Assembly (NCBI GenBank): GCA_027972325.1
Contig: JAPMOS010000044.1
Location: 1-64,000 of the forward strand
Reading direction: 5' to 3'
From: Paratrimastix pyriformis
Taxonomy: Eukaryota; Preaxostyla; Paratrimastigidae
Length of the DNA stretch: 64,000 nt
In this document: piece by piece, positions 9,831 through 64,000 of the stretch
How the letters are laid out: every line of letters starts with the position of its first letter
How positions within the stretch are numbered: the first letter of the stretch is position 1
Made by a program: the position numbers and the translations under genes
The notes under the pieces: model-generated
Told to the model about the DNA's origin: nothing
Seen by the model: the letters and a program-made list of their open reading frames with translations, nothing else
Databases searched by the model: none

Positions 9831-12800
9831 TCAGTAGTGGCCCCGCCCACCGCCATAGCCGCCCCGGCCGCCCCCATAGCCGCCCCGCCCTCCGCCATAG
9901 CCGCCCCGCCCACCGTAGCCGCCCCGGCCGCCCCCATAGCCGCCGCTGCTGCCGCCCCGGTGGCCCCAGCCCCCGCCTCCGGAGGACATGCCGGGCACCT
10001 CCTCCCGCTGGAGCAGCTCGGGGAGGCTGGTCGCCACGAGGACCTCGTAGAACCGGTTGCCCGCGAAGGCCTTGATGAAGGGGTCGACCTTGGCCGAGGG
10101 CACGTCGAAGACGGCCGCCTTGCGGTCCTTCGTCAGCCGCATGGCCTGCGCCTGCGCCACCCGCATGGAAAGCCGAGGGGGGTGAGAGGCAGGCAGGGGC
10201 AGGCAGGGGGGCAAGGCAGGCAGGGGGCGAGGCAGGCAGGGGGCGAGGCAGGCAGGCAGGCAGGGCACAGCGGGAGCATGCGGACCGCTGCGACGTCCTC
10301 CTCGAGCATCCACTTGCGGAGGCAGCCCCAGACGAAGCCCGGCCCGTGGAACTCGAGCGTCTCCACGGGGCGCGTCCAGCGCGACTGCTTGGCGGGCTCG
10401 GCCCCGGCGCTGGACCGCTGCCGGAAGAGCAGCGTCACCTGGCCCGTCTGGGCAGAGAGCAGCGAGCGGCTCTCGATGGCCTGGGTGTTCCCTGAGGAAG
10501 CCCGCGGAGGAGGACGGACAACAGACGGTGAGCCGGTCGGATTGGCCAAACGGCAATCCCAACCCCCACACACACACACACAGCAGGGCAGCGATGGGGG
10601 CGGACCTGAGACGAAGGCCAGGGCGCGGGCGAGGACCTCGGTGGCAGCCTGCATCTGGAGGGTGCACTGGCGGGCCAGGTCATCGGCCGCAGCGGGCTTG
10701 GGGGCCTCCTCGTCGTCCTCGTCGTCCTCGCCCTCCTCATCCTCATCCTGCTCCTTCGGCTTCTTCGCGTCGGTGGCCTCCTCCTGCTCGGTGGCCAGGG
10801 GCGTCTTGACGGCCACGGCAGCCACCCCGCCCACGGGCCGGATGGGGACGGGCTTCTTGATGCCCTTGGGGGTGTCCGCGTCCTCCTCGCTGCTGCTGCT
10901 GTCCTCGTCCTCGTCCTCGTCCTTCTCCTTGGCCTCCTTCTCCTTCTCCAGGCGCGGCTTCTTGCGGGCCTCCTCGGACTCGGCGGCCGGGGTGGTGGCG
11001 GCGGCCTTGGGGGCCGGGGAAGGCGACCGGGCCGGGGTCGGGGTGCGGGCCGGCGCGGGGCTGGGGCTGGGGCTAGGCGAGGGGCTCCGCTCGGGGCCCT
11101 CCTCGGCCGGGTCGGGCTCCTCGCCCGTCAGCTGCCGGTAGCGCTGCATGATCAGGTCGCGGGCCGTCTCGGCGAAGTAGGGCACGACGCCCCCGTTGAC
11201 GGTGCCCAGCGAATGGACGGCCTCGCGGCCCGCTGCGGCCAGAAGCTCAGCAGGCTGGGGCGGCCCCACGTGCTGCAGGGTCAGCTGCAGGCGCCGCTCC
11301 AGCTGGCCCAGCATGACCTCCTGCCGGGTGCCGAGTGCCGAGCCACGGGTTGCGGTCAGTCGTCAGTCCCAGCCGGGTGAGCGGGCGGGGGGCGGGGGGT
11401 TGGGGGTGGGGAGCGGCGGCGACGGACCTCGCGGGGCGAGTAGAAGATGATGCAGACGCCGGCACGGCCCGCACGGCCGGTACGGCCTGACCGGTGGACG
11501 TAGTTGTCGAAGTCCTGCAGCCAAACCCAAACCCAAACCCAAACCCAAACACGGGCGGGTCAGCCATGGGCTCCAGCAGGGGCGGAGGGACACAACCACG
11601 GGGCGGGGCGGATGGGCGGAGGAGGCCGGACCTTGGGGGCGTGGCAGAGGACGATCAGGTCGACCCGGGGGATGTCCAGCCCGCGGGAGGCCACGTCGGT
11701 GGCCACGAGGACGTTGAAGCGGCCCTCGCGGAACCCGGAGAGGGTCAGCTCGCGCTGGGTCTGGACAATGTCCCCGTGCAGGGCCTGCACCTGGTGCTTC
11801 TGGGAGAGCTCGGCGCTCAGGCAGAGTTCGTTGGCCTCGGCCTTCGTGTCCGCGAAGACGATCGCACGGCCCCCGGCGCCCGAGTAAACCTGCAGTGCCG
11901 CCCCCGCCACCACACACACCCAGGCGCACAGATTCGGATGAGGTCGCCAATGGTGCGGTGGTGGAGCCACGGGGGCAGTGAGGGCGGGAGTTGTGATGGT
12001 GGTGGGAGCAATGGTGCCGGAAGGTTAGTGGTAGCGATCGTTGTGGTGGTCGGTAGTGGTCGTCCCGGGCGACCAACCCTCTTCCGTGCCGCCTCCCTCA
12101 TCCTCCACTCCACGGGGGCGCGGGCGGACCTTAATGACGTCGGCCAGGGTGGCGGCGCGCTGGGTGTAGTGGACCTGCATGGCCAGGTGGCGGGTGCGGG
12201 AGGGCATCTTGTTCTGCTGGCCCTTGACCAGGTCGATCTCCTTGACGTGGTCCGCGGCCGGGGTGCGCATGTGGTTGCGGGACATGGCGCGCACCCAGGG
12301 CGGGATGGTCGCCGAGAAGAGCAGCAGCTGCCGGGTGCTGCCGGGGGGCGGCCGGGGGGCGGGGGTGAAGGCGGCCGGGCCGGCGCGGGGCGTGGGGGCG
12401 CGGCTGCCGGGGGCCTCGTCGTCCTCGAAGAACGACTCGATCGGCAGGCCCGACGCAACCTTCAGCACTTTCTGCGGGGGGCCCCGAGGGGGAAGCGCAG
12501 CCCCACGGGTGGGGGTGGGCAGGGCGAACGGGTGAGCGTGGGGGCCGGATAATGTACGAAAGGTGGCTGGGGGTGGGTGGGGACCAGACCTCGACGTCGG
12601 GGGCGAAGCCCATGTCGAGCATGCGGTCGGCTTCGTCGAGGACGATGAAGTCCAGCCGCGAGGGACCGCCGCTGCGGCTGGGGCGGGGAGGCGGCCGGCT
12701 TGGCGGCGCCGGCCGGAGCCGGGGAGGCCGAGGGCTTGGGGGTCGCGGGGGCCGGAGGGTGCAGCAGAAGGGAGTGGCGCTTCAGGTGGTCGAGAATGCG

Positions 12801-13739
12801 ACCTGAGGCAGCAACAGGGAGGAGACAATAGCAGCCGTCAGAAGGCAGAACGGGTGAAGTGGTCGTGGTATGGTCGTGGTAGTGTGTGTGTGTGGGGAGT
12901 GGCCGGCAGACCGGGGGTCCCGATCACGACATCGACGCCCTGCTCGAGGATCTCGCACTGGCCCTGGATGGGCGCGCCGCCGTACAGGCACACCGTCCGC
13001 AGGGGCACGTAACCCGCCACACCCGTGGGGGTGTTGGCCGAGGCGAGGACGGCCTCGCCGCCACCACGGCGTCCGCTCGCCCGCTTGGCGGGCCCGTGCG
13101 TGGAATCGGGGGCAGTGCCATTGATGAGGCTTTCGAAGTCCTTCCACACCTGCACGGCCAGCTCGCGGGTGGGCAGCATCACCAGGGCGCGAGGCACCCG
13201 CTGGGCCGGTTCGAGACGCCGGCGGGGGGTCCAGCCACCCGACGAAGGGGAGGAAGCCGGGGCCTTGACGGCAGGTTCGCTCAGCTTTTTCTCCCGCAGC
13301 CGCTCAACGAGGGGCAGAGCGAAAGCCAGCGTCTTGCCAGTCCCAGTTTTGGCACGGGCAATCAGATCGAAACCTTTATGAATAGGATCGAATGCCTAGT
13401 GTTCGTGCGTACGCCAGTGTAAGAAGCATGCCCTAACTGAATACCCAAGTCCTCCACAGACTGCAGCCTGAACGGGGAACAGTCCCTCGATACCGCGCCG
13501 ATGGAGCATCTCGACGGTATGCGGGGAAATCTTGAATTTATCCAACGGGACGACCTCAATATCGATGTGTTCATCTGGAGGGCAGCCGAAGAAGAGACCG
13601 TGAAGGACGAGAAGACACATGAAAAGATGGGCTGACCGTCGTCGTCATCATGCTGCGGTTTCTTGATAGCTGCTGCCGGGGACGCAACGGGGGCAGGTGA
13701 GGGGGTCTCTCGAGCGTGTTTCTGGCCCACGGTACTCAT
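9831..13739 (-). CDS. DDX21/DDX50-like DEAD-box RNA helicase
   Basis: ATP-dependent RNA helicase, probably nucleolar and acting in ribosome biogenesis by family analogy. Exons: 13739-13637, 13574-13462, 13395-12912, 12785-12590, 12471-12130, 11889-11632, 11514-11428, 11320-10606, 10491-10286 and about 10160-9831 (stop TGA). The order of motifs is a Q-motif ([20 protein letters not shown]), Walker [19 protein letters not shown] within [15 protein letters not shown], then [10 protein letters not shown] of the second RecA lobe. A long acidic/Lys-rich linker follows, then a segment resembling the GUCT domain ([15 protein letters not shown] ... GCLRKW), and a [10 protein letters not shown] tail ending at the stop. 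GUCT plus an RGG-type tail is the DDX21/DDX50 architecture. The frame slips once in the Ala/Pro-rich linker of the fourth exon, before the DEAD motif, probably at a G/C run. Divergent from the gene at 14234. Confidence 0.88.
10188..10267. repeat. GGCAGGCAGGGG-type simple repeat in intron
   Basis: Irregular tandem GGCAGGCAGGGGGC units inside the last intron of the helicase gene. On the transcript strand they read as C/T-rich CTGCC units and so may serve as a polypyrimidine tract before the acceptor near 10170. Confidence 0.7.
11521..11548. repeat. Telomere-like (AAACCC)n tract in helicase intron
   Basis: Four to five copies of AAACCC on the + strand, read as GGGTTT on the transcript strand. 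It directly precedes the acceptor GGCTGCAG of the exon carrying [10 protein letters not shown]. It is too short to claim a telomeric origin; a T-rich splice tract is the simpler reading. Confidence 0.7.
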
Positions 13740-14233
13740 TCGCGCTTTTTCCTTTCTGAAGGGTCTAGAACCGCGGAGACAGAATTCGGCTCCCTGGAAA
13801 CTGCTTGCAAACAAAACCTCTCAGCACGTTGTACGGGGCGCAATTTATGGGTTGTTCCAAGCAGAATCAGAGATGGACATGGTTGAATCGGGATAATAGA
13901 GCCTACTCTGAAAGTGGCCATTATTTTGTGAAATCAGCAGATTATGCCAAAAGAAAGGCCCAAGATCCCGTCCGAGGTTTTTCAGCATTTTATAATAATC
14001 CATGTTGCTTCCCTCGTTCCGTCAACATACATCCCGCCTCCATTCGTCGGAGAGGCAGTTAACCTCGTTCTGGGCGAATTTTCGTGGAGGATTCGTTTTG
14101 GCGACGTCAGAACCATGAATTCCCATGACTTCCATATTGGCGAGATTGGTACCATTTTTTTGGGCTGTCGGGATGGAGCCGCATTGTACACGACAGTGCG
14201 ACTCTTCAGGCCGCCACTGCCGCCTCGCCACGC
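13740..14233. promoter_or_regulatory. Divergent intergenic region (helicase / papain-like gene)
   Basis: A 494 bp AT-richer stretch between two divergent start codons, so it should hold both promoters. I see no TATA box at a convincing distance and no RNA gene. Short open frames in it (for example 13805-14062) have neither gene-like composition nor a splice signal. Confidence 0.55.
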
Positions 14234-17889: not shown

Positions 17890-18888
17890 TTACTCTGGAG
17901 GGATGTGACCTCGGCCCAGGGCGGCGGGGCGCGGTCGGACCGGGAGGCCCGGTGGAGGGGGTGGAGGCAGCCTCCCCCGAGGGGCAGGAGGGAGGTTGAG
18001 ATCAGTTCCCCGGGGAGCAGGCGGCGGGGTGTCCGAAGAGGCCACCCGAGGGCGGTGCGGATGGGGCCGGGGCCGGGGCCGGGGCCTGCGTGCCGACAAG
18101 GCGGCCCCCAGCAGCAGCACATCGAGCGAGGGATTCGGTGTCGGGGTCTGCATCATGCGGAGCAGGGCCTCCGTGGGGGTGGCGGTGGCGGCGGAAGGGG
18201 TGGGAGTGGGGGCGGCCGACAGGGACAGGTCGAGCGAGCCGGGAAGCACCCGGCCAGGGGCATCGGCCCCACGGGCAGCTGCGGCAGCTGGAGGGGCAGA
18301 ACCCAGGAGGGACACGTCGGCCATGGTGAGTTCCCCTCCCAGCGACGCAGATGGTTGTGGTGGTGGGGTGGTTGGCCCCGCGAGTGGGGGCGGCGGAGGC
18401 GGGGGCGGAGCGCTGGGGGCCGCTGCCAGCCAGGCCGAGAAGGGCGGCGGGGGCGGAGTGGCCGCCGTGTCGGCGGCGGAGGGGCGGAGGAGGGCAGCCG
18501 GCAGCGAGGTGGCGGCGCCGAGGTCCTCGGGGGGCCGCGCCATCGCCATCTCGAGCAGCGCCGCCGCGGCCAGGGGGGGCGGGGGGGAAGGGGAGGGGAA
18601 GGGCATGGCGTCGGTCAGCAGCACGGGCGAGGCCGACCGTGCCGGCGGGGGGATGGCCTCGTCATCTGACTTCACCACGGCGGGGGTGGCGGGCGACCAG
18701 GAGTCAGGGCAAAGTTTGCCGTCGTTCTTGTCGGCGGGCTGCGGCTGCGGCTGCTGCTGGGGCGCCTTGAGGGCGGCCAGCTCGAAGGCCCCATCGGAGG
18801 CCTCCGCCCCCAGCAGCGGGTTGACGGCCACCAGGGCAGCCGGTCCCCCCGGGCCCGACGCCTCTGCGGCCTCCACGACGTGGATTCG
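17890..18888 (-). other. Cytoplasmic tail exon of right giant protein
   Basis: About 332 residues, rich in Pro, Ala and Ser, with no folded domain visible. Short conserved blocks stand out against the fast-evolving background in both paralogues: NPLLG(A) near the start, ALLEMAMARPPEDLGA, LTM(A/S)DV(A/S)LLG and SLDVLLLGAAL(S/A)ARRPRP. The end is (A)ALGRGH followed by different last residues in the two copies. These blocks look like docking motifs; partners are unknown. Confidence 0.7.
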
Positions 18889-21800
18889 CTGCGCAGCACA
18901 GGAAGGGACAGGAGACGGGGAGAGGGGGAAAGGAGGGGCATGAGAAGGACCGAATGCCAAACCAAAGCGAATGACAAATGGATCGAATGCCAAAAACAAA
19001 AAAAACCAGAGCGATGTTCGGGGGGCTCGAACGGGTGGTGCGCGCAGGCGGGGGCAAAAGGAGGAGCGGTGTGGCGGGTGGCAGGCAGGCAGGCGGAGCA
19101 GGGGGGGGTGGGGGGATCGGCTGGTTGGCTGGGCTGACCTTGTCGTCCTGGCGGCGGCGGCGGCGCCGGACGAGGAGCAGCAGGCCCAGGGCGGCCAGCC
19201 CGGCCAGGAGCAGGGCCCCCAGGGCGCCCCCCAGGTAGGCCGCCCAGAGGCCCGTGGCCCCGGCTGGCCCCACTCGGAGGCAGGCGTCGCCGCTCGTGCG
19301 GTTGTTGGCCGCGGCCGCCTCGACCAGGGCGAACTGGGGGCCCGTGCAGCGGCACCCCCAGACCAGGCCCCCCCCGCCACCGGCGGCAGTCGACTGGCAC
19401 CGAGCAGCCCCGTCGCCCCCCTGCTGGCAGTCGGCGTCCCCCCAGCAGCGGCGCGTCTCCTCCTCAGGCACTGCACGCCAGCAGCAGGCAGCAACACGCG
19501 ACGGGGGGTGGGGATGCAGGGTGAGAGAGGAGCAGGGGAGGGAAGTGTGGGTGTGTGACTGCGTGTGTCGAGGGTCGTGCGTCACGAGGCTTGGTCAGGC
19601 AGCGGTGCGGGGCGGTGCGGACCTGTGATGTTGGTTTGACACTGCGGCCCCGTGCGGCCGGCCGGGCAGCGGCACCCATAGAGGAGGCCGCCTCCGCTGC
19701 TGCCGCTGCCGCTGCCCGCCGCCACCGCCACCACGCAGGTGGCCCCGCCCCCGCCGCAGTCCTCGTCCAGCGTGCAGTTGCTCCCTGCAACACAACCCCA
19801 CCACCCACCACCGCCGCGCCCCCAGAATGGAGAAACAGCGATGACGATCGAGCCACGAGCGGTGAAGGCGAGCGGCGAAGGCAGGCAACAGCGCGAGGGG
19901 GCAGGTGATGCCGTCGAGGGGATGGGGGACAACAGTGGCGGAGGTGACGGCGGTGGCGGGGGTGAGCCGGACCGAAGTAGATCAGCGAGGGGCCCTCGGT
20001 GGCGACGCTGAGGGCGGCCGCGAGGCTGTTGCCGGCCCGGTCGGCGAGCCCGCTCAGCAGGAAGCCCACAGGCCCCACCGCGTCGGCCGCCCCCAGCCGA
20101 TACGAGCCCACGAAGGCCACCCCCACAGCCGACGCCGAGTTGCTGCTGGTGCCGGCGCTGTGGTTGGTGCCGGTGCCGGCGCTGTGGTTGGTGCTGGCGA
20201 TGGTGCCGGCCCGGGCGGCGGGGGCGAGGATGACGTTGACCGGGTGGCCGGCGATGGTGAGCCGGACGCCCTCGGGCGGACCCGGCTCGGTGGCGGTCAG
20301 GGCCACCGTCAGCAGGTCGCCCGGCTGGGCCACACGCGGGTTGGCGTTCGAGCTGCCGAAGGCCAGCCGACTCACGGCCGGCGCGGTGCAGTCCAGCACC
20401 ACCGCCCCCGCGCCACTCGCCGCCACCACCGGGGCCGCCCGCAGCCCGTTGCCGGCCAGGTCGGTGGCCTCGGTCACGGCAAACCCCAGGGCGGCCCCCT
20501 CCCAGGCCGCGCAGTCGGCCGGCCCCACCACCACCGTCGCCTCCCACCACTCGCCCGCCGCCGCCGCCGCCGTGGTGGTGGTGGTCGTGGGGCGGGCGGC
20601 CAGCGGGTGGCCGGCGATGGTGACGGCGGCCGAGCGGAGCGGCTCGCTGGCCAGGAAGCGGCCCCGCAGGGTGTCCCCCGGCCGGGCCCAGGCCCCGTCC
20701 CCCGCCGGGTTGCTGCTCGTCAGGCGGAGCTCGCCCACCACGGGGGAGGTCGTGTCTGGCGGCGGGCGGCACAGAAGGGAGAGTGGAGCCAGTCAGTCAC
20801 CAGTGAGTGGGCAGAGGCAGAGGCAGAGTAACAAAGGGAAGGGAGGATGGGCGAGGCGGACCGTTGATGACCGTGACGAGCCTCGGGCCCCCGTCCACCA
20901 CCACCACCACCGCCGACCCGCCGCCGCCACCACCGTCGCTGCAGCGCACCTCGAGGGTGCAGTTGACGGCCGTCGTCCCGTTGGCGGCCCCCGCAGCGGG
21001 CAGCCCCGCCCAGGCCGCGAAGCGGGCCCGGTAGAGCGAGCCCGGGCCGGGGGTCCCGTCGGGCAGCGTCACGTTGCCCGGGGCGCAGCCCCACTCCACC
21101 TGCGGCAGGGCGGCCCCGTCCCAGAGCACCCCGAAGGGCGGCTCGGGGCTGGCGTACGGGCAGGGGATCAGCGCCCCCGCCGCGTCCCGGGCCTCCAGCC
21201 CCAGGGTCAGGTTCTGGCCCAGGCCCACAACCACCACTGCCGCCGCCGCCGCCGACCCCCCAGAGGGGGCCACCACCCACGCCAGCCGGCTGGTGTTGGC
21301 CATGGCGGGCGCCGTCACGGCCAGGGTCGTGTTGCCCTGTGCCAGCAGTGCCAGCCGCCCCGACGCCCCGACGCCGCCCTCGGCGACCACCCGGGTGCCC
21401 ACGGCCAGCACGTGAGGCCCGGGCGCAGGGGGCCGCACCTCGCCCACGAAGTCCTCCTCCACCGAGGAGGGGGTGAGAGAGGCCGACGATCCGGTGCCGC
21501 CGCAGGACCAGGCCGGGTCGGGGGCAGGCTGGGGGGCGGGGGCCCCGTCCCAGAGCAGCTCGAAGGCGGTCCCGGCCGTCAGGGCCGTGCAGCCCACCCG
21601 GTTGCCGTACCCGTCGCGGGCCTCCACCGCCACCCGCACAGGCTGCCCCACCCCAACCTGCACTGCCACCGCCGCCGCCCCCGTCGCCGCCGCCGCCCCG
21701 GCAGCAGCGGTCGGCTGGATGATGGCGTACCGGCTCCGCTCGGCCGTCGGCGGCCCTGTGGCGGCGTGCAGGGCGGCAACACGGGGGAGCAGCGGCGAGC

Positions 21801-24800
21801 AGCGGGAAAGGCAGCCAGCAGAAGACGGAAGAGGGGATGAGACCAGACGGAGGTTCGTGAGGGCAAGAGGCAGGTGCGGGTGATGGGTGATGGCTTGCTG
21901 GCTGACGCCGCACCACCACCAAGCAGGACGTGATCGGGGCAGCCGGGAAGGGGGGAGGCGCGCGGACCAGGGAGCAGGGTGCACACGGCCCGGCCGCTCA
22001 TGGGGGCGCCCCCGCAGGTGGCCGTCAGGACGTGGGCCCCCAGCGCCCCCGAGGCCCACCGGGCCACGAAAACCGACGCCTCCGACTCGCCGCTGCCCGT
22101 GCCGCTGCCGGCGGTCGCGTTGGCGCAGCCCCAGCTGACGTTGGCCGCGGCCGGGGCCCCGTCCACCAGCAGGGCGAAGGTGGCCCCGGCCGTGGCGGCC
22201 GTGCAGGGGACCCGGTTGCCGTACGCGTCGCGGGCCGTGAAGGTGACCGCCGTCGCCCCGGCCGCCGTCGGGTCGGCCCGGCTCGTGGCGGGCGCCCCAA
22301 AGTCGCTCGGCCCCGCGGCTGCCGCCCCGGCCGTGACCCACACCACGGCCACCACCACCGGCGCCGGCGCCGCCGCAGCCCCGGCCCCCGTGGCCACCGT
22401 CGGGACGGGCTGGCCCCCGTAGCTGATGGCCACCGTGTGGGGCCCCGCCTGGGTGGGGGCCAGGGCAGCCGCGAACCGGCTGGGCGTCTCCGGGCTGCAC
22501 GACCAGGTCGGGCCGCCCCCACCACCCGGCACGGCGGCGCCCCCGGCCCCGTCCCACAGCAGCCCGAAGGTGCTGCCTGCCAGGGCGCCCGTGCAGGGGA
22601 CCGCCACCCCGGCCCCGTCGCGGGCCGCCACCAGCACCGTGCAGGCCGCCCCCGCGGGGATGCTCGCCGGGGCCACGAAGACGCTCCGCCCCGCAGCCAC
22701 CACCGCTGCACCCGCACACGGCACAGCACCGTGGGGCATCCCGCAGATCCCATGGCCGAAAACGGGCCGCCGGGAGGGGCTGGCGTGGGGCGGCTGGGGC
22801 AGCAGACCGGCGCTGATGGTCACCGTGACGGGGCCGCCCCCGAGAACCCCGCCGTCGCCGAGGGCGGTCACGGTCACCGCGTGGGCCGACCCGGCGGCTC
22901 CCGTGGCCGTGACCGAGCCCACGAAGCGGGCCGGCACCTCGGCCGAGCAGCCCCAGCTGACGACGGGCCCGCCATCCGCCACCAGCAGCCCGAAGGTGGC
23001 GTTGGCCGTGGGGCCCGTGCAGGGGATCACCGTCCCAGCCGCGTCCCGGGCCGTCACCGTCACCACAAGCTGCGAGCCCGCAGGGACGGCCGTCACCCCC
23101 GCGCCGCCGCCCCCGATGACGAAGCTGCTCCGGCCGGCCGAGGCGGGGCCTGCACCACAGCCAGCAGGCCGCCCACCAGCGCACCCACACATTCAGCGGA
23201 ATCGCGCGGGATGGAAGCCGGGATGGAAGCCGGGTGGGTGAGGGGGAAGGCAGAGGGCAGAGGGGTGGGTGGCCGGTGGCGGACCGGTGACGGTGACGTT
23301 GAGCGAGGCCGAGCCGCCCCCCGCCAGCAGCAGCGGCGCCCCGGCGCAGAGGACGGTCAGGGTGTGGGGGCCCACGTCGGCCAGGGCGGGCGTGAAGGTG
23401 CCCACGAAGAGGGCCGGCACGTCGGCCGAGCAGGCCCAGCTCAGGCCCGCCAGGGGGCTCCCGTCCTCGGCGGCCACCGTGAAGGGCGCACCCCCGGCCG
23501 TGGCCGTGGCGGTGGCCGTGCAGGGCACCGGGTTGCCGAAGGCGTCGCGCCCCGCCACCCGCACCGTGGCCGGGCTGCCCGCCGCAAGGGTGCCCCCGGC
23601 CCCGGCCTCCGCCCCGCCCGACCAGAGGCCAACCAGCGCACTCGTGCCGGCCGACAGCGAGCCTACAGAAGGGACAACGAAGGCGGGGTCTTGCCCGCTC
23701 CCCGGCACCCCCCTCCCACATCCGCCACCCGCTGCCCATGGGGGCTGCCGCAGACCCGGCCCCACCTCCACCTGGGCCGCCCCGCCGGCGCCCAAGGAGA
23801 CGCCCCCACACCGCGCGCCCAGGGTGTGCGGGCCGGCCCCCGTCGGGGTGAAGGTGGCCACGAAGAGGGCCGGCACGTCCCCCGAGCAGGTCCAGTTCAG
23901 GCCCGCCGGGGCCGCCCCGCCGTCCCACTGCAGCTCCAGCCCCGCGGCCGCGGCAGCCCCCTCGGCATCGGCGTCGGAGTCGGAGGAGGCGGCAGTGCAA
24001 GGGACGGCGTTCCCATACGCATCCCGGGCGGCGATGGTGACGCGCAGGGGCGCCCCCGCCGTGGCCAGGGCCGGGCAGCTGAGGCCGCTCTGCTGCGGGC
24101 TGACCGGACCCGGGCCCACGGCCACCGGCAGCTCGCCCCCAGCCAGCAACCCCCGGCCGGCGGGGGGCCGGCCGTGCTGACCCGGAGCAGGTGGGCCCCG
24201 CTGGCCGTGGGGGCCCCGAAGGCGCCCACGAAGAGGGCCGGCGCCGCCCCCGAGCAGCTCCACCGCACCGCCGCATCAGCCGCCGCCGCCGCCCCGCCGC
24301 CGGCCCACTGCAGCCCGAAGGCCGCCGCCGCGGTGGCGTTGCTGCAGCCGATCGGGTTGCCGTACGCGTCGCGGGCCGCCAGGACGACCGTCCCCGCGCT
24401 GCCCGCGGTCAGGGTCCCGGCAGGGGCCGCCACCACCCGACTCGCACTGGCCGCGGGGGGCCCTGCAAAGCGCGCGCGGGCACACGGACACACAGGGAGC
24501 GACCAAAGGGAAAGAAGGCCGAACGGATGGTGAGATTGACCCCCAGACGAGCGTGGCGGGCCCATGCAAGTGCCGAGGCCGAGGCCGAGGCCAGGGCCAG
24601 CCGACAGACCAGGGGTGACGGTCAGGTTGACAGCCGCCCCGCCTCCTCCGCCCAGCACCAGGCCGCCGTAGGTGGCGGCCACCCTGTGCGACCCGGCGGC
24701 GGTGAGGGTGCCCGTGGCCACGAAGAGGGACGGCACGTCGGCCGAGCAGGACCAGCTCAGCCCCAGGGCCGCCGCCCCGTCCCCCGAACCCGCGGGTGGG

Positions 24801-27800
24801 GCGGCCCCGTCCCACTGCAGCCCGAAGGTGGTCGCGGCGGTGGCGTTGGTGCAGCCCACAGCCGCCCCGGCCGAGTCGCGCCCGGCCACCGCCAGCAGGG
24901 TGCAGGCCGCCCCGGCCAGGCAGGCGCACTCGCCCCCGCCGCCACAGCCGCCCAGGAAGCCGCTCCGCCCAGCCGAGACCACCGCTGCCGAGAGGTGCCC
25001 GGGAGGAGGGGGGAGGACGGGACGCAGACGAGATGAGATGATGAGCAGCTCCGCCGGAAGGGGCAGGGGTCGAGGGGAGTGATGCGGCACCGCTGGCGGG
25101 GAGCTGAGGCTGGTGGGCGGGGCCACCGGGGGGAGCGGACCGGGCGTGACGGTGATGGCGGCCCCCGAGCCGCCGCCCAGGGGCAGCCCGCCCAGGGTGA
25201 CGGCCAGGCTGGTCGGGCCGGTGGCCTCGGGCGCGGCCAGGCGGGCCACGAAGCGGGCCGGCAGGTCGGCCGAGCAGCTCCAGGTCAGGCCGGCCGGCGC
25301 CGCCAGGCCAACCAGCAGCCCGAAGGTGGCGTTGGCCGTGGGGCCCGTGCAGGGGATCACCGTCCCAGCCGCGTCCCGGGCCGTCACCGTCACCACAAGC
25401 TGCGAGCCCGCAGGGACGGCCGTCCCCCGCCCTCGATGGCGAAGCTGCTCTGGCCGGCCGAGGGGGGGCCTGTTGTGTCCAGGGGTGGACGGACGAGATA
25501 TGATTGCTAGCGGGAGGCGGGCGGGCGGGCGGGCGTGGCGGGTGGCGTCAGAGGGAAGCGAGGGCCCAGCCGCGGACCGGTGACGGTGACGTTGAGCGAG
25601 GCCGAGCCGCCCCCCGCCAGCAGCAGCGGCGCCCCGGCGCAGAGGACGGTCAGGGTGTGGGGGCCCACGTCGGCCAGGGCGGGCGTGAAGGTGCCCACGA
25701 AGAGGGCCGGCACGTCGGCCGAGCAGGCCCAGCTCAGGCCCGCCAGGGGGCTCCCGTCCTCGGCCGCCACCGTGAAGGGCGACTCCCCGGCCGTGGCCGT
25801 GGCGGCGGCCGTGCAGGGCACCGGGTTGCCGAACGCGTCGCGCCCCGCCACCCGCACCGTGGCCGGGCTGCCCGCCGCAAGGGTGCCCCCGGCAGGCGAG
25901 AGGCCAACCAGCTCGCTCGTGCCGGCTGCGATGGACGCTGTGGATGACGAGGCGAGCGGGGCGGCGGTGGGAACGGGGGGGCGGCGGTGAGATGGAATGA
26001 AAGGGAATGCATATGGCGGTGAGGATGGCCGACGATCGAGGGCCTGCAGACCGGGTTCCACCACGACCCCGGCTGCCCCGTTGCTGCCCAGGAGGGCCCG
26101 CCAAGGGTCGCGGCCACCGTGTGCGGGCCGGCCCCCGTCGGGGTGACGGTGGCCACGAAGAGGGCCGGCACGTCGGCCGAGCAGGTCCAGTTCAGCCCCA
26201 GGGCAGCCGAGGGCGCGGCCCCGTCCCACTGCAGCCCGAAGGTGGTCGCGGCCGTGGCGGCGGTGCAGGCGACCACGTTTCCGTAGGCGTCGCGGCCCGT
26301 GACGACCAGGCTGAGGGGCGCCCCCGCCGTGGTGTCGGCCGTCCCGTTGACCCCGAAGGAGCTCTCGGCAGCCGACAGCCCCCCTGCGGCCCCAGCCACG
26401 AGGAGGAGCAGATGAACGCGAGGTGCAGCCCCAGCCCGGGTCAGGAGGGCAGGTCCGGGTCCGGCCGGCAGGCGGGATGAATGAGGAGGAGGAGGAGGAG
26501 GAGGAGGAGGAGGAGGAGGTGGTGGTGGTGGTGGTGGTGGTGAGGGCGGGGCGGGGACGGACCCGGCTCGACACGGAGTGGCATGTGGGCGGCGATGCGG
26601 ACGCTGAGCGTTCGGACGGACAGCCGCTGGCTGCCGGCCATGGTGGGGGTGAACGAGGCCACGAAGATGGCCGGTCCGCTGCTGCCGTTGGCGGCCGAGC
26701 AGGACCAGGTCATGGCGTACGGCATGAGGCGAAACGCCAAGGGGCTGGCCAAGTAGATCCGGAACTGGGCAGGACCCTGGGCGGGGTCCTGGCAGGGCAC
26801 CGGGTTGTAGCACGCGTCCCGGGGGCTGATCCTCACGATGCAGGCCGATCCGGCCGTGACAACGCTACTGGCCAGGGCTACCGCGCTCGTCAGGAAGGCA
26901 ATCGGGCCTGCAGAGGGAAGCAGGGCGGGAGAGGGTCGCATCCTGAGTCAGGCGACACTGAATGTTCTCCATCTCGCTCGCTGTCTCTCCTCGGGCGGTC
27001 AGTGGCGGCGACACAACATGACCGGACATGGCGCCGGGGGGACAACACCATCATCATCATCATCATCAACAGCAGCAGCAGCAGCAGCAGCGCCCACAGA
27101 CCGGCCGTGATGTTCACCGCTGCCGGCCCGGGGGCGAGGGCCAGGCCGCCGTACGTGGGGGCCACCGTGTGGGCGCCCGCCTGGCTGACGGCGAAGCTGG
27201 CCGCGAACTGGCCGCCCGCTGCGCAGCTCCAGCTGACCGGCCCGATCTCAAGGCTGCCGTTATCCAAGGCGGGGGCGCCGTCCCACAGCAGGCCGAAGGT
27301 CCCCGCGGCCGTGGCCGCCAGGCACGGAACGGGCGCCCCCGAGGGGTCCCGCGCAGCCACCGTCAGGACGTAGGGCCCATCACAGCCGGTCGCGGGCGAT
27401 GGCGCCGTGAAGCTGCTCTGCGCCCGGTCCACCAGCGCTGCCGAGGCCAAGGGGTCGGTGGGTGGGTCGGTGGGTCAGTGGGGGTGGAGACGGTCAGCCA
27501 CCCAAAGGCAAGGCGGGCGGGGGCCACACGCCAAACGGGGCCACATGCCAACCGGGCCGGGGCGAGGTTTGTGGGAACGGATGCGCGGCATCGAGGCGAG
27601 GCTTCTTTGGGGCGAGGGTGTGACAGACGGGGGCCGACCACCGTCGGGGCCAAGGGGGCGCCCGCCAGGGGCACCCCGCCGCAGGTGACGGTCAGGTTGA
27701 CGGGCCCCAGGGCCGTGGGCAGATACCGGGCCACGTAGAGGCCCCCCGGCCCGCAGCTCCAGGCCACGGCGGCCGGGCCGGGCGGCGCCCCGTCGACCAG

Positions 27801-46500: not shown

Positions 46501-49280
46501 AAGAGGCACGGGTGCCCGGCCCAGGTCAGCAGGCGGGCGTAGTGGGTGCAGCAGTAGTGCGGGGCCGACAGGTCCAGGCTGGGGCACACCCAGGCGTACT
46601 GCACTTGGCGGCCGGTGACGGGGGTCAGGGGCGCGTCCTCGGGCCACCACGACCGACAGGGGCCGCGGCGGGAGCTGGCGGGCACCTTGCTGTCGGGGCA
46701 GTCGCAGTAGAACAGGGCGACCCGGGTCAGGGAGAGCCGGTGGCCGGCGTGGCAGCGGGTCATGCAGGACTGGCAGACGCCCAGCTTGCCCGTCAGGCGG
46801 CAGGTCTCGCAGGCGAAGAAGGGCTGCTTGGTGAAGTTGTCGCCCGTCCCCTGATGCGTGCAAACCCCGCAGTCGACGCACTGCCGGGCCGTAAGCTCCA
46901 GCTTGATCTACAGGGATGGGGGGTGGCGGTGAGGAGAGCAAATGCAAATGAACGACAAGGTCAGAAGAAGGGCCATCATTGAATGGGAAAAAAGTGTGGT
47001 CCTGTCGGGGCAGGGACCAGCCACGGCACTGCTACCGTGGTGGCGGTGTGCCCGAAGGACGAGGTGAGCTTTTCTCTAGCACGGTTATGACCCGATTACC
47101 CCCAATCCCCACCACAAGGGCGGGCCCCCTCTCCAGCCCCACCCGTCCGGCCCCAAAGCCCGCTCCCACGTTCCCAACCCACAAGGGGCTGGAGGAGAGA
47201 CAGGCTCGGGAGCCGCCGGGCAAGGAGCCTTGGAGTGAGAGGGAGATGAGGGCAGTCTTAAGGACCGTGCGGCCACCCGGAATCGAACCGAGGACCTTAC
47301 GGATGACAACCTCACACGCTATCACGTTGCGCCACGACCACACTGAATAACGGGAGAATCCGGGAATGACGGACCTCACCGAGGGTCTTCTCATCGACAT
47401 CGGGCTGCTCGGGGAGGGACCGCGGGAAGACGGCCGAGAAGGAGTCCAGCCGGATGACGGTGTTGTCGGCGATGGTGATCTCGTCGGCGGTGGCCGGGCT
47501 CGTCCGGGTGGCCATGGCGATGCGCTCGGCGTCACGGTCCGGGTAGAAGAGCTGCCCATCGGCCTTCAGCAGGGAGGCCGCGTGCAGGATGGCCCGCCGG
47601 GGGGCGGGGTCCGTCAGGATGACCCGGTCGAAGGCCACGTCGCCGGGCTTGTAGGCGAACAGGGACCGCTTGACCATCACGGCCCAGTGGATCGGGTCCG
47701 TGCGCAGGTACAAGTCAAACCGCTTGACGGTGTCGCCCTCGGCCGTCAGAGCCAGCATCCAGCCCGTCTTGCCGACCAGCTTGGCGCAGCTCAGGGCCAG
47801 GACACCGCACTCGCCGCCGACGACCAGCACCCGCATGCCCTCGGCCAGGTGGAAGCTCTGCACCATGGCCAGCAGCACGGAGGGCTTCAGCGAGACGACG
47901 GGGCCCACCTGGGCGGTGGTGTCGTCGAAGATCTCGTCGTTGGGCTCCTCCTGGGCGGGCAGCAGGGCCGTCCGCTTGACCGACCGCACCTGGGCCAGGA
48001 TCTCGGGGACCGGGGCGCAGCGGAGCAGGGACTCGGCGCGGGCGGGGATCTGGCTCCAGATGGCAACCTCCTTGAAGCTCCCGAAAGGCCCGACTGTGCG
48101 CGAGAGAAGGGGGCGGAGAGGCGGAGAGAGGGAGGAATGAGCCACATGGCGCGGGCGCGCGGGCGGGAGATGCAAGAAGAGGAGGGAGGGGAGTACGAAG
48201 CTCAGTCGAAAGACGGTGTTTTGGCGGCAAGGGCCGCACTCGTCACGCGAACGGTCAGCCACCGAATGATGCATCACGGCTTCCAAGCAGAAACGGGGGG
48301 GGGGGAGGGCGGACCCTTGCGGAGGACGTCGCCAACCTCGTCGGCGAACTTCTTGGAGAGGTTGAAGGGCACCATCTGCCACTGCATCTCGGCCCGGGGC
48401 TTGCGGGGCAGCAGCGCCTTGCCGTTGGCGAACTCCCAGATGTCGCCCTCGGGCAGCTCGGGCTGCTTGAACACCGTCGGGCTGACGATGTCCTTGTCGG
48501 GGGCCCGCAGGCACTCCAGCTTCCAGTCCCAGTTGCAGGGGCCCTCGGAGACCGTGGGCAGCCGCATGACGCACTGGTTGGCGGGGCAGCGCAGGAAGGC
48601 GCTGGTGCGATCCTTGTTGTGGTCGAAGTCCAAGCCGGACAGGGTCAGCAGCTCCGTGCCCGAGAAGATGCCGAAGTAGAGGGTGGGCGTGCCCCGGCAG
48701 AAGGCGCACTCGAGCTCGCGGATGGCGCTGACCGACCGGCAGGCCGTGCACTGGACGGTGCCGCGCTTGGTGTACAGAGGCTGCACGAAGGGCACGTCGC
48801 AGCTGCGGCAGGTGGGGATGCAGATGTGCTTGCACCGGTTGCAGATGCCGACGGCCATCCGGATGCCGCCGCCCATGATCTCCTCGCCGCCCCAGTTGCT
48901 GAAGGCGGCGTCCTCGTACCGGGTGCCGCCCAGCTGCTTGGGGGCGGACGAGCCGGAGGCCTTGGGGGCCCCGGCGACCTCGAGGCCGTCGGTGAAGATG
49001 CGGTCGGACAGGGCGGCGCACCGGGCGACCAGGGCCCGGAGCGGGTCGCGCGAGCCCGGGGCAAGAACCAGCGGAATCAGCGAGGACACCAGGTCTAATG
49101 GGTGGGGGTGAGCGGGGACGTCTTGGTGGCGGGCAAACAGACGTTCCTCGATGATGAGGGCGATCCACTCGTGGGACAGGGTCAGCACCGAGAAGACGCT
49201 CATGACGGCCGTCCGCAGGCTGCTCAGCAGCAGCGTGGCCGAGGCCTGGGAAACGGGGTCCACCCCAACAGCCAGCGACA
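40576..49280 (-). CDS. HECT E3 ubiquitin ligase with UBR box (3' half or separate gene)
   Basis: Ten exons, all junctions in phase: 49280-48315, 48093-47375, 46907-45348, 45232-44804, 44702-44046, 43732-43360, 43206-43081, 42996-41633, 41503-40983 and 40834-40576 (TAA). That is about 2,324 residues after the first junction. Order: zinc-ribbon-like CxxC pairs (CNRCKHICIPTCRSC; CTACRS), a degenerate isoaspartate-methyltransferase-like Rossmann fold (GMRVLVVGGECG), a UBR box (CETCR, GVCQSC, CHAGH, FYCDC), and two acidic/His-rich linkers. Two CUB-like domains follow (ESNHNY, ESPHPY), then a complete HECT domain with FVGEGATDQGGPYRE, LRFVTGRSRMPP and catalytic Cys in HTCFNS (codon 40710-40708). 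HECT ligases pass ubiquitin through that Cys; UBR boxes bind N-degrons. The opening exon is unresolved: the first codon here needs one base from upstream. Confidence 0.87.
43994..44013. repeat. G run (C on transcript strand) in HECT intron
   Basis: A run of about 20 G in the intron between exons 44702-44046 and 43732-43360. It is poly-C on the sense strand of the gene. Confidence 0.8.
47268..47341 (-). tRNA. tRNA-Asp (anticodon GUC)
   Basis: A 74-nt cloverleaf with standard 7/4/5/5 geometry. The acceptor stem is 47341-47335 with 47275-47269 and discriminator A at 47268. The D-stem is GCGC/GCGT, the anticodon loop is TTGTCAT with GTC at 47307-47305, the variable loop is AGGTC, and the T-arm is CTCGG-TTCGATT-CCGGG. 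The A-box (TGGCGCAACGTG) and B-box (GGTTCGATTCC) fit the pol III consensus. Oddities are several G-U pairs in the acceptor stem, an A-G mismatch in the anticodon stem, a D-loop without the usual GG, and no downstream T4 run that I can find. It lies inside the HECT intron 47374-46908, on the same strand. Confidence 0.85.
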
Positions 49281-49294
49281 CTGAAAGAGAGCGC

Positions 49295-49317
49295 GGGGGG
49301 GGGGGGGGGGGGGGGGG
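49295..49317. repeat. G23 run upstream of acceptor
   Basis: Poly-C on the HECT sense strand, about 14 nt before the acceptor CTTTCAG at 49281. Confidence 0.85.
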
Positions 49318-49601: not shown

Positions 49602-49621
49602 GGGGGGGGGGGGGGGGGGGG
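49602..49621. repeat. G20 run directly after a stop codon
   Basis: Poly-C on the sense strand, immediately following the TGA that ends the 5' HECT-region frame. Confidence 0.85.
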
Positions 49622-54757: not shown

Positions 54758-54789
<32 letters not shown>

Positions 54790-59740: not shown

Positions 59741-59799
59741 TTACAATCCTAATCGAGGGTGACCAAAAAGCAAGGAGGAAATGCAGCACAGGGACTGAA
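59741..59799. promoter_or_regulatory. 59-bp divergent promoter space
   Basis: Only 59 bp separate the start codon of the HECT-region gene (59740, minus) from that of the small secretory protein (59800, plus). Either the two transcripts overlap at their 5' ends or both share one bidirectional core promoter with very short leaders. No TATA-like element is visible. Confidence 0.6.
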
Positions 59800-60420: not shown

Positions 60421-60918
60421 GGAGCGCCTGCCGTCATCTTCTCTGAATATCGCTTGCTTCCGACCAACGTGCCCCTGCCTTCTCCGCGCTTATGAAGCGT
60501 CGTCCCCAAAGCTGAATGGTCGTTTCTCGATCCTTCGACGGGATGGCGCCGATTCTTTTCTCATTTCGAGACTATTCCTGCATGCTGGGTGCCCCCACCT
60601 GTGAAAGCAGGTGCCTTCTCAGCGAGTGTGAATAGTGCGTCCTGAGAGAGGGTGGCTGCATTTGGTTGCGACTTTGCGATCTTTTTGAGTCGTCAATAAC
60701 TTTTCTCGATGTTTTTTTGTGCGGAAAAAACTCGATCGTTCCACCCTCGTCTCCGCGAAAACGGGCACTCACTGTTTGAACTCGAGCTACATCACGCCGC
60801 CGCGCTGGCGGCTGTTTAATTCCCTGTGGCAGCTCAGCCCACAGGGATTTCTTGCTAAGCCCGACCGGTGTGGGTTTGACTTTGTGCGTCGGGGCCACAC
60901 TCGATTGTTGGCCTTCGC
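60421..60918. other. Intergenic region before EF-hand/WD40 gene
   Basis: About 500 bp between tandem plus-strand genes. It is AT-richer, with no RNA gene or repeat that I can support. It should hold a 3' end and a promoter. Confidence 0.55.
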
Positions 60919-63279
60919 ATGGATCAGAACCAAACTGGCCCTCCACCTCTCCAGCCAGAGCAAGTTCCAGGTGCCTCTTCGGAAGCACCTGCTGCTCCGT
61001 CTGATCCTCCGGAAACCCCGGCCAACGAAACTCTCGAGCCCTCACAACTCCCACAACCCAACACGATTGATGCTTCTCCTCGACCCACGCTTTTGGTCCC
61101 ACCCACGCCGCTTCATACTGCCTCTTCAACCGAATCTCTCGTGACGATCGATCGTGCCGGGCCAGAACCAGTCCTTTCGCCGAGCCCTTCGGAGGCCCAC
61201 GTTGACTCTCCGGCTTCCCATAAACAGGGGCCGCAGCCTCTTCTCTCCCCATTGCCACATTCTCCCGTGGAGGAACCGACCCAGTTCTCATTTGCCCCCG
61301 AACCCGAGGGGGATGTCGACCGATCGGCCTCTCTCGACTCGGGCGACCGGCACGAGGTCGCCATCTCTTCGGGCGATGACGAGTCACGCTCCTCGGGATC
61401 GCGCACTCCGGCCCCACTCGGCGACATCCCCGGCGGGGGCGGCGTGGACGACAGTGGCGAGGAGGAACCCTCATCGCCCGAGGGCGAGGCCCCCGACCCC
61501 TACCAGCCACGGCCCTTCCCGATCAGCCCCGCCTCCGTCCCCGTCCACTCTCCATCTCCATCTCCCCCGACCCCCCCGGGCCCGAGGGCTCACTCAGCTC
61601 GTCCCGCTCGCCGGCCCACTTCTTCCCCTTCAACCCCCTCTCGCTCCACGTCGACCCTGCCCTCTCCCAGCGGGCCTCGACGGCCTCCCCGCGCCACCAG
61701 CCGCGGGCCCCCTCCATGCTGGACGAGCTCGACGCCAAGGCCAAGGTCCGGACCCCCCCCCCCCCCCACAGACACACGCACACACATTCGCCGCATATGA
61801 AATGACGCTGGCTTCACGCCTCTCGTTCCTGCTTGGCGGGCATGCAGGAGATCGTTCTGCGATCGCCCCACCTGGCCGCCATGGCGGCCCTCCCCATTCC
61901 CCGGCTCCCGGCGGGCCCATCCCCGCGCGTCGTCTCGGCGACCCCCGCTCGGACCCCGCCGCCAAGCCACCAGCGCCGCCACCTCCACCTCCACCCCACC
62001 AGCCTCCTCCGCGCCGCCCCTGGAACGGACGCACTCCCCCCGCCCCCCGTCTGACGAGCCACCCTCCGAGGTCTGTCGTCCCCTCTCATGTCCCCGCCGC
62101 CGCTGTCCCTCCGATGTGTCGCGCGCCGCTTCACCCAGCTGGACCGTTTTCGCTTTTGTTTTCTTCCCTCAGCGCCGGCCGCGGCACCACCACCACCGGC
62201 CAGCGGCCACCCCCCCGGCGGCAGCCCCAGCGACCCCGGTGGCCCCTCAGTCTGCGGCCCCGTCTGCTGTGAGCACCCCGGCCGCCCGCTCCTCCCGCGG
62301 CGACGAGTCCCCCGGGCCCCAAAGCCCTGCCATAAGCGCCGGTCCGCCCCCCGGGGGAGAGTCAATGTGGGGCCGTCAATGCCCTGGGCCGAGAGGGCGC
62401 CTCTTTGGCTCCCCCACCTTCGCCCATTCGCAGCTGCACGTCTCACACTGCTTCGGTTCTCCCTTCGTCCTCCTTCATGTCCGTCTGTGGCTCCGCATTC
62501 CGGTGGTGTCCAGCCACCCCACGCCTGGAGTCGCGCGGTCCGTGTGCGCCTCTGCCCCCACCTCCCCCTTTCTCCTCCCAGAAATCCCCTCACGTCACTA
62601 CCCCCACGTAGATACCCCCCGAAGCGTGGCCTCCTCGCGGGTCTCGGGCCACCCCCAGCCCACCCCCACTCCCATCCCGGAGGACCGCCTGCTGACGGTG
62701 ATGTCGCCCCGGTCGCCCCGCCGGCAGCGGATCAACCCCGACGGGTCCCTGGGCCCGCCCGCCCCCGCGCCCAGCCTGACGCTGGCCAAGCCGGCCCTGC
62801 CCAACCCCGAGGACCCCTTCCGCCACAGTCAGGGCCGCATCCGCTTCCTGGGGCTGGCCCCCCTGCTCGGCCTCGAGCCCCAGGAGCTCCAGTTTCGTGA
62901 GCAGCTGCTGCGCGATGCCCCGCCCGGCGAGTCGGGGCTTCCCCATCCCGTGGCCGGCCTGACGGCGACCCCGGTCGGGCGCGGGGCAGACAGCGAGGGC
63001 GGCGCGGGCCGCTTCCACCTGAAGGCCGACGGGCTGCGGGGCCTGACGGAGCACCAGGTCGAGCAGATCGGGGAGACCATCCATGCCGCCAGCCCCCAAC
63101 ACACCGTCAAGCTCTCCGAGGTCTGCATCCACACCCACCGCCACCCACCGCCACCCACCTCCGATCACGAACCACCCACCCTCCGCTTCAAACCACCGAG
63201 CAGTTGTCACACCGTCATCACCATCATCGCTCTTGTCCTGGTCTCTGCTTGTGGTTTTGTCGCTGATGATGATGTTGTT

Positions 63280-63326
<47 letters not shown>

Positions 63327-64000
63327 TGTGGGCCAGTTTGTGCGGATCCTGTCGGGCCACGTGACCCTGTGCGAGGACGACCTGGCGCTGCTCTTCCGGG
63401 AGATCGACGCCAAGGCCACGGGCCGCGTCTCGCGGGGCCAGTTCAACAGCTACCTGGCCGAGACCCGCCGGGCTGAGGATGTCCTGACGGCACGGGTCTG
63501 CGGGCTCGCCAGCCCCCATCTCATCGTTCATCGCTCGTCACTCATCGCTCGTCACTCATCGCTCGTCACTCATCGCTCGTCACTCATCGCTCGTCACTCA
63601 TCGCTCGTCACTCATCGCTCGTCGTACGCCACGCCCCGTTCATCACTCATTCACTCCTCAACCATTCAACCCCATCACGCACCACGCCCCAGCCACGTCC
63701 TTTGCACCATGCGCCGCGCGCTCACAAACTCACAACTCACCGCCGTCCGCTTTGCCCCCCCCCCCCCCCCCCCCCCCGCGTGCAGCGCTACAACCTGCAG
63801 ATCATGCCGCCCCTGAGCCGGCTGCGGCACCTGTCCAACATCGAGCTGATGATCTACGTGCCCCACGCCAAGGAGGACTACCTGCTCACCTGCGGGCGCG
63901 ACTCGCGGATGCACGTGTGGGTCCACCGGGGCACCCAGTGGGACCCAGTCATGACCCTGCTGACCCCCGACCCACACGTCACCCTGCCCGTGGACATGGA
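60919..64000 (+). CDS. EF-hand/WD40-type protein, 5' part
   Basis: Exons: 60919-61745, 61848-62070, 62173-62341, 62582-63120, 63337-63495, and 63786 past the window end. The first 400 residues are acidic, Pro/Ser-rich and probably disordered. Conserved blocks then begin: RFHLKADGLRGLTEHQVEQI, then CEDDLALLFREIDAKATGRV with a degenerate EF-hand loop (Asp at 1, Gln instead of Glu at 12). The last exon begins a WD40-like repeat (HLSNIELMIYV, DYLLTCGRDSRMHVWV). The order resembles WDR49/EFCAB8-type proteins, often linked to cilia; that link is inference. The lengths of exons 1 and 2 are each off by one or two bases from the required phase. The frame visibly changes in C-rich stretches near 61565 and 62030, most likely under-called C runs. 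Confidence 0.72.
63264..63328. repeat. GAT/TGT/TGC trinucleotide tract in intron
   Basis: (GATGAT), (TGT) and (TGC)n runs just upstream of the acceptor GGGCCAG at 63336. It is intronic and not a coding poly-Leu or poly-Ala tract. Confidence 0.9.
63527..63630. repeat. 14-bp tandem repeat TCATCGCTCGTCAC
   Basis: About seven direct copies in tandem within the intron 63496-63785. There are no spacers, so it is not a CRISPR array. Confidence 0.92.
63755..63777. repeat. C23 run before acceptor
   Basis: Poly-C on the sense strand of the plus-strand gene, 4 nt before the acceptor GCGTGCAG at 63785. Confidence 0.9.

What the first reader, a model, noticed from the sequence alone, without database searches (positions are those of the whole stretch)
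9831..63495. Uniform non-canonical 5' splice site GTCNG (mostly GTCYGY)
In five genes on both strands (helicase, papain-like, both HECT halves, EF-hand/WD40) I placed 44 introns by reading frame. Every donor starts GTC and has G at +5: GTCCGT/C/G, GTCTGT/C/G, a few GTCAGY and GTCGGC. The giant gene shows the same pattern. Exon lengths sum to whole codons, which supports the boundaries. Most eukaryotes prefer a purine at +3 and A at +4 (GTRAGT, or GTATGT in several protists). A fixed C at +3 implies a changed U1 5' end and/or U6 ACAGA-box pairing. It would also make standard gene finders fail here.
Basis: partly seen in the sequence, partly recalled or inferred. Interest (0 to 1): 0.88.

Follow-up and report, generated by a model that had tools for sequence, protein, structure and literature searches.

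The report
U1 RNA rewired for GTC introns
A microbial eukaryote with an unusually GC-rich genome marks the start of most of its introns with GTC-pyrimidine-G instead of the usual GTAAG/GTGAG, and the eight U1 RNA genes found in it all carry a two-letter change, in a stretch held to be nearly fixed across eukaryotes, that lets U1 read the new signal.

Summary
The donor pattern is real and genome-wide, though not absolute. A gene model with a neutral donor (only GT favoured) gives GTCNG at 160 of 341 GT donors in 20 sampled 10-kb stretches, against 13% of nearby GTs and 28 of 322 on reversed sequence; GTRAG is 3 of 341. Introns placed by protein homology in two chaperonin genes give GTCNG at 11 of 14; the exceptions are GTTGGA, GTTTGT and GTATAT. 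Positions 5-6 are AG, not UU, complementary to AG|GUCUGUAU. No canonical U1 copy was found. U6 is unchanged (ATACAGAGA, 4 of 4). U1 now shares the 7-mer AUACAGA with the U6 box, so both RNAs that read the donor in turn ask for the same sequence. 27 of 27 snRNA genes read share an upstream CCCATAA, so the U1 copies look live. Unexplained: the commonest donor is GTCCGC; C at +4 and +6 faces A in both U1 and U6. No RNA data; organism not identified. Eight literature searches returned no whole-genome U1 switch of this kind.

The parts
9831..13179 (-). DEAD-box helicase gene (DDX21-like); 7 introns with GTCNG donors once one donor is corrected by homology
   Evidence: gene model; solved 'Nucleolar RNA helicase 2' sequences 6l5m/6l5l
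12803..12911 (-). intron, donor CCG|GTCTGC, junction GTP|GRI
   Evidence: inside the ungapped aligned stretch 60-101
12472..12589 (-). intron, donor GAG|GTCTGG, junction DVE|KVL
   Evidence: ungapped alignment across the junction
11890..12129 (-). intron, donor AAG|GTCCGC, junction IK|VYSG; the gene model chose a false GATCGC donor, homology gives this one
11515..11631 (-). intron, donor AAG|GTCCGG, junction APK|DFD
   Evidence: ungapped alignment
11321..11427 (-). intron, donor GAG|GTCCGT, junction PRE|EVM
   Evidence: ungapped alignment
   Evidence: gene model only; one ORF of it had no Pfam hit
40576..46979 (-). HECT E3 gene; 7 of 8 proposed introns GTCNG
   Evidence: gene model, HECT PF00632, HECTD3 9r85
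41504..41632 (-). intron, donor AAG|GTCAGT, junction RTK|NPF
   Evidence: ungapped alignment to HECTD3
40835..40982 (-). intron, donor CCG|GTCCGC, junction LRF|VTG
   Evidence: ungapped alignment to HECTD3
   Evidence: gene model only
61313..64000 (+). gene cut by the window end (reader: EF-hand/WD40); 5 of 8 proposed introns GTCNG
   Evidence: gene model only
17890..39579 (-). giant repetitive gene; 29 of 39 proposed introns GTCNG, 32 of 39 GTC
   Evidence: gene model only
1..8720 (+). second repetitive gene of the same look; 10 of 16 proposed introns GTCNG
   Evidence: gene model only

Best explanation
The major spliceosome of this lineage has switched its 5' splice-site code. U1 snRNA positions 5-6 changed from UU to AG, so its 5' end AUACAGACCUU now pairs with AG|GUCUGUAU instead of AG|GUAAGUAU, and the introns of the genome have moved to GUC(Y)G(Y). 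U6 did not change: +2 to +6 of GUCUGU is the complement of the canonical U6 ACAGA box, so U1 and U6, which read the donor one after the other, now present the same sequence (AUACAGA). Shown: the U1 change in every copy found, the unchanged U6, U2 and U5 regions, the donor shift. Inferred: that these U1 genes are expressed and assembled, that pairing drives donor choice, and the order of events (probably +3 C tolerated through U6 pairing first with U1 following, or both together).
For: 8 of 8 U1 genes carry ATACAGACC. A search not using the U1 body (promoter element plus ATACNNACC) returned 12 hits, none with TT: 8 are the U1 genes; of the other four, two were read and show no U1. U1 matches the Rfam model over its full length, E 3.7e-13 to 2.0e-10. 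CCCATAA stands upstream of 27 of 27 U1, U2, U5 and U6 genes read. U6 ACAGAG canonical 4 of 4, U5 loop canonical 7 of 7, U2 GTAGTA region present in 8 of 8 read. Donors; homology-placed 11 of 14 GTCNG; ten further junctions supported by solved-structure alignments plus one weaker. Pairing: of 16 letter pairs at U1 positions 5-6, AG ranks 2nd for trained donors (mean -6.83 kcal/mol; canonical AUACUUACCUGG -3.83) and 3rd for neutral ones. Three contigs that carry U1 genes have many GTCNG donors in the neutral model: C24 42 of 68, C441 37 of 77, C388 7 of 18, so U1 and donors belong to one genome.
Against: The commonest donor outside the window is GTCCGC (87 of 385), while GTCTGT, the full complement, is 28 of 385. 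+4 is C about twice as often as U (155 C, 72 U of 249 GTCNG), the ratio of the intron body (2.15 vs 2.09, p 0.89), although U1 A5 and U6 A43 would pair with U; GG at U1 5-6 would pair better than AG (-10.1 vs -6.8). 3 of 14 homology-placed donors are not GTC. The C212 and C245 samples show little GTCNG (neutral 2 of 14 and 0 of 15; trained 5 of 9 and 4 of 14), though C212 carries a U1 gene. All 8 U1 scores (50.8-60.2) are under Rfam's gathering score 69.5. No RNA evidence.
Confidence: 0.87

Rival explanations
1. U6 alone selects the donor: GUC(Y)G is favoured because it suits the ACAGA box, and U1 has drifted or plays little part.
For: U6 is canonical and complementary to UCUGU. A pyrimidine at +4 without a U preference argues against strong pairing to A5. 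Literature passages say U6 pairing is the main selector and U1 can be dispensable in some contexts (PMC11732430, passages).
Against: Drift would not be expected to give a dinucleotide with G facing the fixed +3 C, kept identical in 8 of 8 dispersed copies. The C/U neutrality at +4 speaks against pairing with U6 A43 just as much.
Confidence: 0.15
2. The donor pattern is an artefact of gene finding in a 70% GC genome (self-training on GTC valine codons, C-rich introns).
For: Trained HMMs reinforce their own motif; some proposed introns are wrong. +3 C alone in the first 13 homology-placed donors is only modestly above background (10 of 13, p 0.020).
Against: Neutral-donor model 47% against 13% background and 8.7% reversed control; canonical-start training converges to the same motif; GTCNG in homology-placed introns 10 of 13, p 2.9e-7, 11 of 14 with one more; independent U1 complementarity.
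Confidence: 0.02
3. A canonical U1 exists but is missing from the assembly, and the AG copies are variants serving a subset of introns, as with an alternative U1 in one diplonemid.
For: The assembly may be incomplete; alternative U1 variants are known (PMC12621601, passages).
Against: 0 of 8 U1 genes canonical, while 9 full-length U2, 7 U5 and 4 U6 genes are present. GTRAG donors almost absent: 3 of 341 outside and 3 of 94 inside the window.
Confidence: 0.05

Closest known systems
Canonical U1 snRNA (Rfam RF00003) and AG|GURAGU donors
   Same: Full-length covariance match, 5' AUAC..ACC end, 3' stem-loop, promoter element shared with the other snRNA genes
   Different: Positions 5-6 AG instead of UU; donors GUC(Y)G(Y)
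Saccharomycotina +4A to +4U switches (Parker et al. 2023, PMC10581693; passages read)
   Same: Genome-wide change of donor preference beside an unchanged ACAGA box
   Different: There U1 ACUUACC was invariant in the 227 of 230 genomes and 9 of 10 outgroups where U1 was found, and the switch tracked loss of METTL16/SNRNP27K; here U1 changed and both proteins have hits
Second U1 of the diplonemid S. specki with a C-rich 5' end (PMC12621601; passages read)
   Same: Natural U1 with an altered 5' end
   Different: There it sits beside a U1 with the conserved end and canonical donors; here all copies found are changed and donors follow
Chlorarachniophyte nucleomorph (PMC6461891; passages read)
   Same: Donors without the usual motif
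   Different: U1 there keeps the fully conserved 5' motif
Entamoeba histolytica and Cyanidioschyzon merolae, reported to lack U1 (PMC13292270, PMC11732430; passages read)
   Same: Departure from the canonical U1:donor pairing
   Different: U1 lost rather than re-specified
Laboratory U1 suppressor mutants (recalled; such compensatory experiments are mentioned in a passage of PMC11732430)
   Same: Compensatory change in U1 restores pairing to altered donors
   Different: Natural, all copies found, whole genome

Membership tests
U1 spliceosomal snRNA | Sequence and structure match to RF00003 over the full length | tested here: met
   8 matches, model 1-166, E 3.7e-13 to 2.0e-10, but 50.8-60.2 bits against gathering 69.5
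U1 spliceosomal snRNA | Free 5' end that pairs with the organism's donors | tested here: met
   in silico only: complementary to AG|GUCUGUAU; better mean pairing than the canonical end
U1 spliceosomal snRNA | Near-invariant 5' heptamer ACUUACC (a conserved character, not what defines U1) | tested here: not met
   ACAGACC in 8 of 8
U1 spliceosomal snRNA | Expressed, capped, bound by Sm ring, U1-70K, U1-C | not testable with these tools
   only a zf-U1 (U1-C) hit, E 2.4e-8, in a search that also rang in one of 14 prokaryote controls, and an Sm-like AAUGUUUGG stretch (Sm reading recalled)
Major (U2-type) spliceosomal introns | GT-AG ends | tested here: met
   14 homology-placed chaperonin introns GT..AG, one more unresolved
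Minor (U12-type) introns | Long conserved RTATCCTTT donor (recalled) | tested here: not met
   donor consensus is GTC[CT]G[CT]; one sub-threshold U12-like RNA exists

The most novel reading that the evidence does not exclude
A complete natural respecification of U1: the U1 donor-reading end has become identical over seven letters to the U6 ACAGA box, so the U1 'compromise' code GURAGU is gone and the genome runs on the U6 code alone, read twice. An added, unproven possibility: since the U1 end now holds UACAGA, part of the METTL16 target UACAGAGAA (target recalled), U1 A5 may be methylated too, which would help explain why +4 U is not preferred over C.
Probability: 0.55. Interest if true: 0.92.

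Novelty: new variant of a known kind. Interest (0 to 1): 0.86.

Why it matters
The ACUUACC end of U1 is among the most conserved RNA stretches known. A recent study named exactly this kind of compensation (U1 position 5 to A) and, in 230 Saccharomycotina genomes and 10 outgroups, found U1 invariant wherever detected (PMC10581693). Here a genome carries the double change with the donors shifted to match. It offers a natural test of how far U1, U6 and U6 methylation each set the donor code. It also warns that gene finders and spliced aligners tuned to GTRAG would mis-annotate this genome and any relatives that share the switch.

Tried and rejected
Altered U6 as the cause: rejected, canonical in 4 of 4 copies. 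Loss of METTL16 or SNRNP27K as the cause of the pyrimidine at +4: not supported. A METTL16-type hit with NPPF (best solved match 6du4, U6 adenine-43 methyltransferase, E 4.7e-19; the Pfam family itself also rings in 5 of 14 prokaryote controls) and a partial SNRNP27 hit (29 of 56 positions) exist. A second U1 class with GG at positions 5-6, which would suit +4 C: a promoter-pattern hit ATACGGACC on C234 and an extra ATACAGACC on C459 were read and show no U1 match. +4/+6 and +4/exon-G compensation: no association (p 0.36, 0.55); -1 G and +5 G go together (p 0.0015), not against each other. Organism: not settled. GC near 70% recalls Fonticula alba (70.3%, PMC10752896) and Cafeteria (~70%, 34-36 Mb, PMC6972860), but nothing here ties this 56 Mb genome to either; an 18S stretch (L050) could not be placed without a reference set. 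Search of viral contigs for the U1 sequence: 0. Junctions rejected or left out: helicase GATCGC (contradicted by alignment), helicase GCCGGC and GLDC GCCTAC (in unaligned insertions), METTL16 and UPF1-like junctions (gapped, inconclusive), first RPL17 intron (inconclusive), TCP1 intron 4 (acceptor unresolved); GLDC GTCTGT is counted as weak (near a gap). Rows dropped before counts: 22 of 513 trained introns without full flanks; non-GT starts where 'GT donors' is said.
Full report
WHAT WAS CLAIMED. I tested the donor pattern and the snRNAs.

THE GENOME. The window is G000:C377:1-64000 of a 56,060,509-base, 495-contig genome, 62-78% GC per 4 kb in the window. It is a eukaryote with U1, U2, U5 and U6 genes and 18S-like rRNA. 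The organism was not identified.

DONORS WITHOUT HOMOLOGY. I wrote a small gene HMM (coding periodicity, introns, both strands) and trained it without labels on the window and 20 stretches of 10 kb from eight other contigs. Started with a neutral donor it converged to +3 C, +4 C/T, +5 G, +6 C/T. Started with a canonical GTRAGT donor it converged to the same. Outside the window, 385 introns with full flanks: +3 C .90, +4 C .58 T .28, +5 G .82, +6 C .54 T .32, -1 G .58; commonest hexamers GTCCGC 87, GTCCGT 52, GTCTGC 35, GTCTGT 28. Self-training can exaggerate, so I reset donor and acceptor to GT and AG with the other positions neutral: GTCNG at 160 of 341 GT donors elsewhere and 56 of 94 in the window, against 13.1% of 1362 other GTs within 40 nt. 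On the 20 stretches reversed, 28 of 322 (Fisher p 1.3e-29). GTRAG 3 of 341 elsewhere and 3 of 94 in the window. By contig the share varies; C212 (2 of 14) and C245 (0 of 15) are low, for reasons not followed up.

DONORS BY HOMOLOGY. A Pfam chaperonin search reads the genome exon by exon and knows nothing of splice sites. Exon ends were fixed by reading frame and by alignment of the joined protein to solved CCT eta (7ttn, E 9.5e-184) and CCT alpha (3iyg, E 1.6e-176). CCT eta, 8 introns: GTTGGA, GTCTGT, GTCCGA, GTCTGC, GTCTGC, GTCCGC, GTCCGC, GTCCGT. The third lies beside a small gap and was found by eye; the last is an in-frame, stop-free GTCCGT..CCAG segment, not removed in the joined protein, read by eye from an excess of residues. 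CCT alpha, 6 introns: GTATAT, GTTTGT, GTCTGT (exon end chosen by length match), GTCCGT, GTCTGC, GTCTGT, plus one with a GTCTGT donor whose acceptor end does not resolve, left out. Sum: 11 of 14 GTCNG, 13 of 14 with +5 G. For the first 13 counted (10 GTCNG), P = 2.9e-7 against the background rate; for +3 C alone P = 0.020. Alignments to solved structures also support ten junctions in RPL17 (1), VPS34-like (2), DDX21-like (5) and HECTD3-like (2), and more weakly one in GLDC, all GTCNG. Ten of these eleven were first proposed by the trained HMM, so they are less independent; the other, in the helicase at 12129, was missed by the HMM and given by homology. So the rule is strong but has real exceptions.

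U1. Rfam's U1 model finds 8 genes, all full length, all under the gathering score. All 8 begin ATACAGACCTTG; a pattern leaving positions 5-6 open finds the same 8, all AG. A pattern using only the upstream element and ATACNNACC finds 12 places, none with TT; 8 are the U1 genes. Of the other four, two were read and are not U1; two were not read. The copies have different flanks but share TCCCATAA 52-53 nt upstream. CCCATAA stands upstream of 27 of 27 snRNA genes read: 8 U1, 8 of 10 U2 hits, 7 U5, 4 U6. So these look like live dispersed genes.

U6, U2, U5. U6 has GATACAGAGAAGATTAGCATGG in 4 of 4 copies, U5 the loop CGCCTTTTACTA in 7 of 7, and the U2 branch-site region is ordinary in the 8 read. 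UCUGU is the complement of ACAGA, so U6 needed no change. The longest identity between the U1 5' end and the U6 stretch compared is ATACAGA, seven letters.

PAIRING. For 316 trained GT donors outside the window, the real U1 end (AG) has mean duplex energy -6.83 kcal/mol and 7.03 of 12 ungapped pairs; the canonical end AUACUUACCUGG has -3.83 and 5.96. Of the 16 choices at positions 5-6, AG is second to GG (-10.11); for the neutral-model donors it is third, after GG and CG. The G at position 6, facing +3 C, carries the gain. Position 5 is less clear: among 249 GTCNG donors +4 is A 8, C 155, G 14, U 72, a C:U ratio equal to the intron body. Purines are avoided, but U is not preferred over C as pairing with A5 (U1) and A43 (U6) would predict, and +6 behaves alike. 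A tolerated A.C mismatch, or a modified A (m6A in U6 through METTL16, possibly in U1), could account for this; none was tested.

PROTEINS. METTL16, SNRNP27 (29 of 56 positions) and U1-C have hits, so the state differs from the yeasts in which +4 moved with loss of METTL16/SNRNP27K (PMC10581693, passages). The METTL16 and U1-C families also ring in 5 and 1 of 14 prokaryote controls, so the family hits alone are not proof. A U12-like RNA scores below threshold.

LITERATURE. Seen as passages only: PMC10581693 (U1 ACUUACC invariant in the 227 of 230 Saccharomycotina and 9 of 10 outgroups where it was found; a change of U1 position 5 to A named as a possible compensation and not seen), PMC11732430, PMC12621601, PMC6461891, PMC9505925, PMC13292270, PMC10599564, PMC10752896, PMC6972860. 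Eight full-text searches returned no report, in the listings or passages that I saw, of a genome in which all U1 copies and the donors switched together. Listings were capped and the library lacks most subscription journals, so absence is weak evidence.

READING. Best explanation: a compensated switch of the U1:donor code toward the U6 code. Shown: the sequences and their complementarity. Inferred: function, expression, evolutionary order.

Noticed in passing
L001-L019, L042-L049, upstream of each snRNA gene: Shared upstream element (often a T-tract, then CCCATAA, mostly GTCCCATAA) in front of U1, U2, U5 and U6 genes; the 4 U6 genes also have TTAT(A/C)AGG nearer the gene. It recalls the plant USE (RTCCCACATCG, recalled).
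   Followed up: partly
window 1-8720 (+) and 17890-39579 (-): Two very large repetitive predicted genes made of recurring units with ARDAYGN and WSCS motifs; the three ORFs tested had no Pfam hit.
   Followed up: partly
window 8789-9165, 37458-37938, 63528-63623: Minisatellite arrays (CTGTGTGC x47.6, GGGGATG-type x69, a 14-mer x6.9 at 100% matches); the third lies in a predicted intron, the second apparently too.
   Followed up: no
window 47267-47341 (-): tRNA-Asp (anticodon GTC) at the 3' end of the 47312-56559 gene model, overlapping its last proposed intron.
   Followed up: no
genome-wide intron ends: Acceptor is GCAG-rich (-3 C .86, -4 G .52 outside the window) with a weak polypyrimidine tract; TCACC/CTCAC enriched at -50 to -8, a possible branch site.
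   Followed up: partly
G000:C432:103343-103517 (-): Sub-threshold U12-like RNA (44.9 bits, E 2.8e-6): a minor spliceosome may exist.
   Followed up: no
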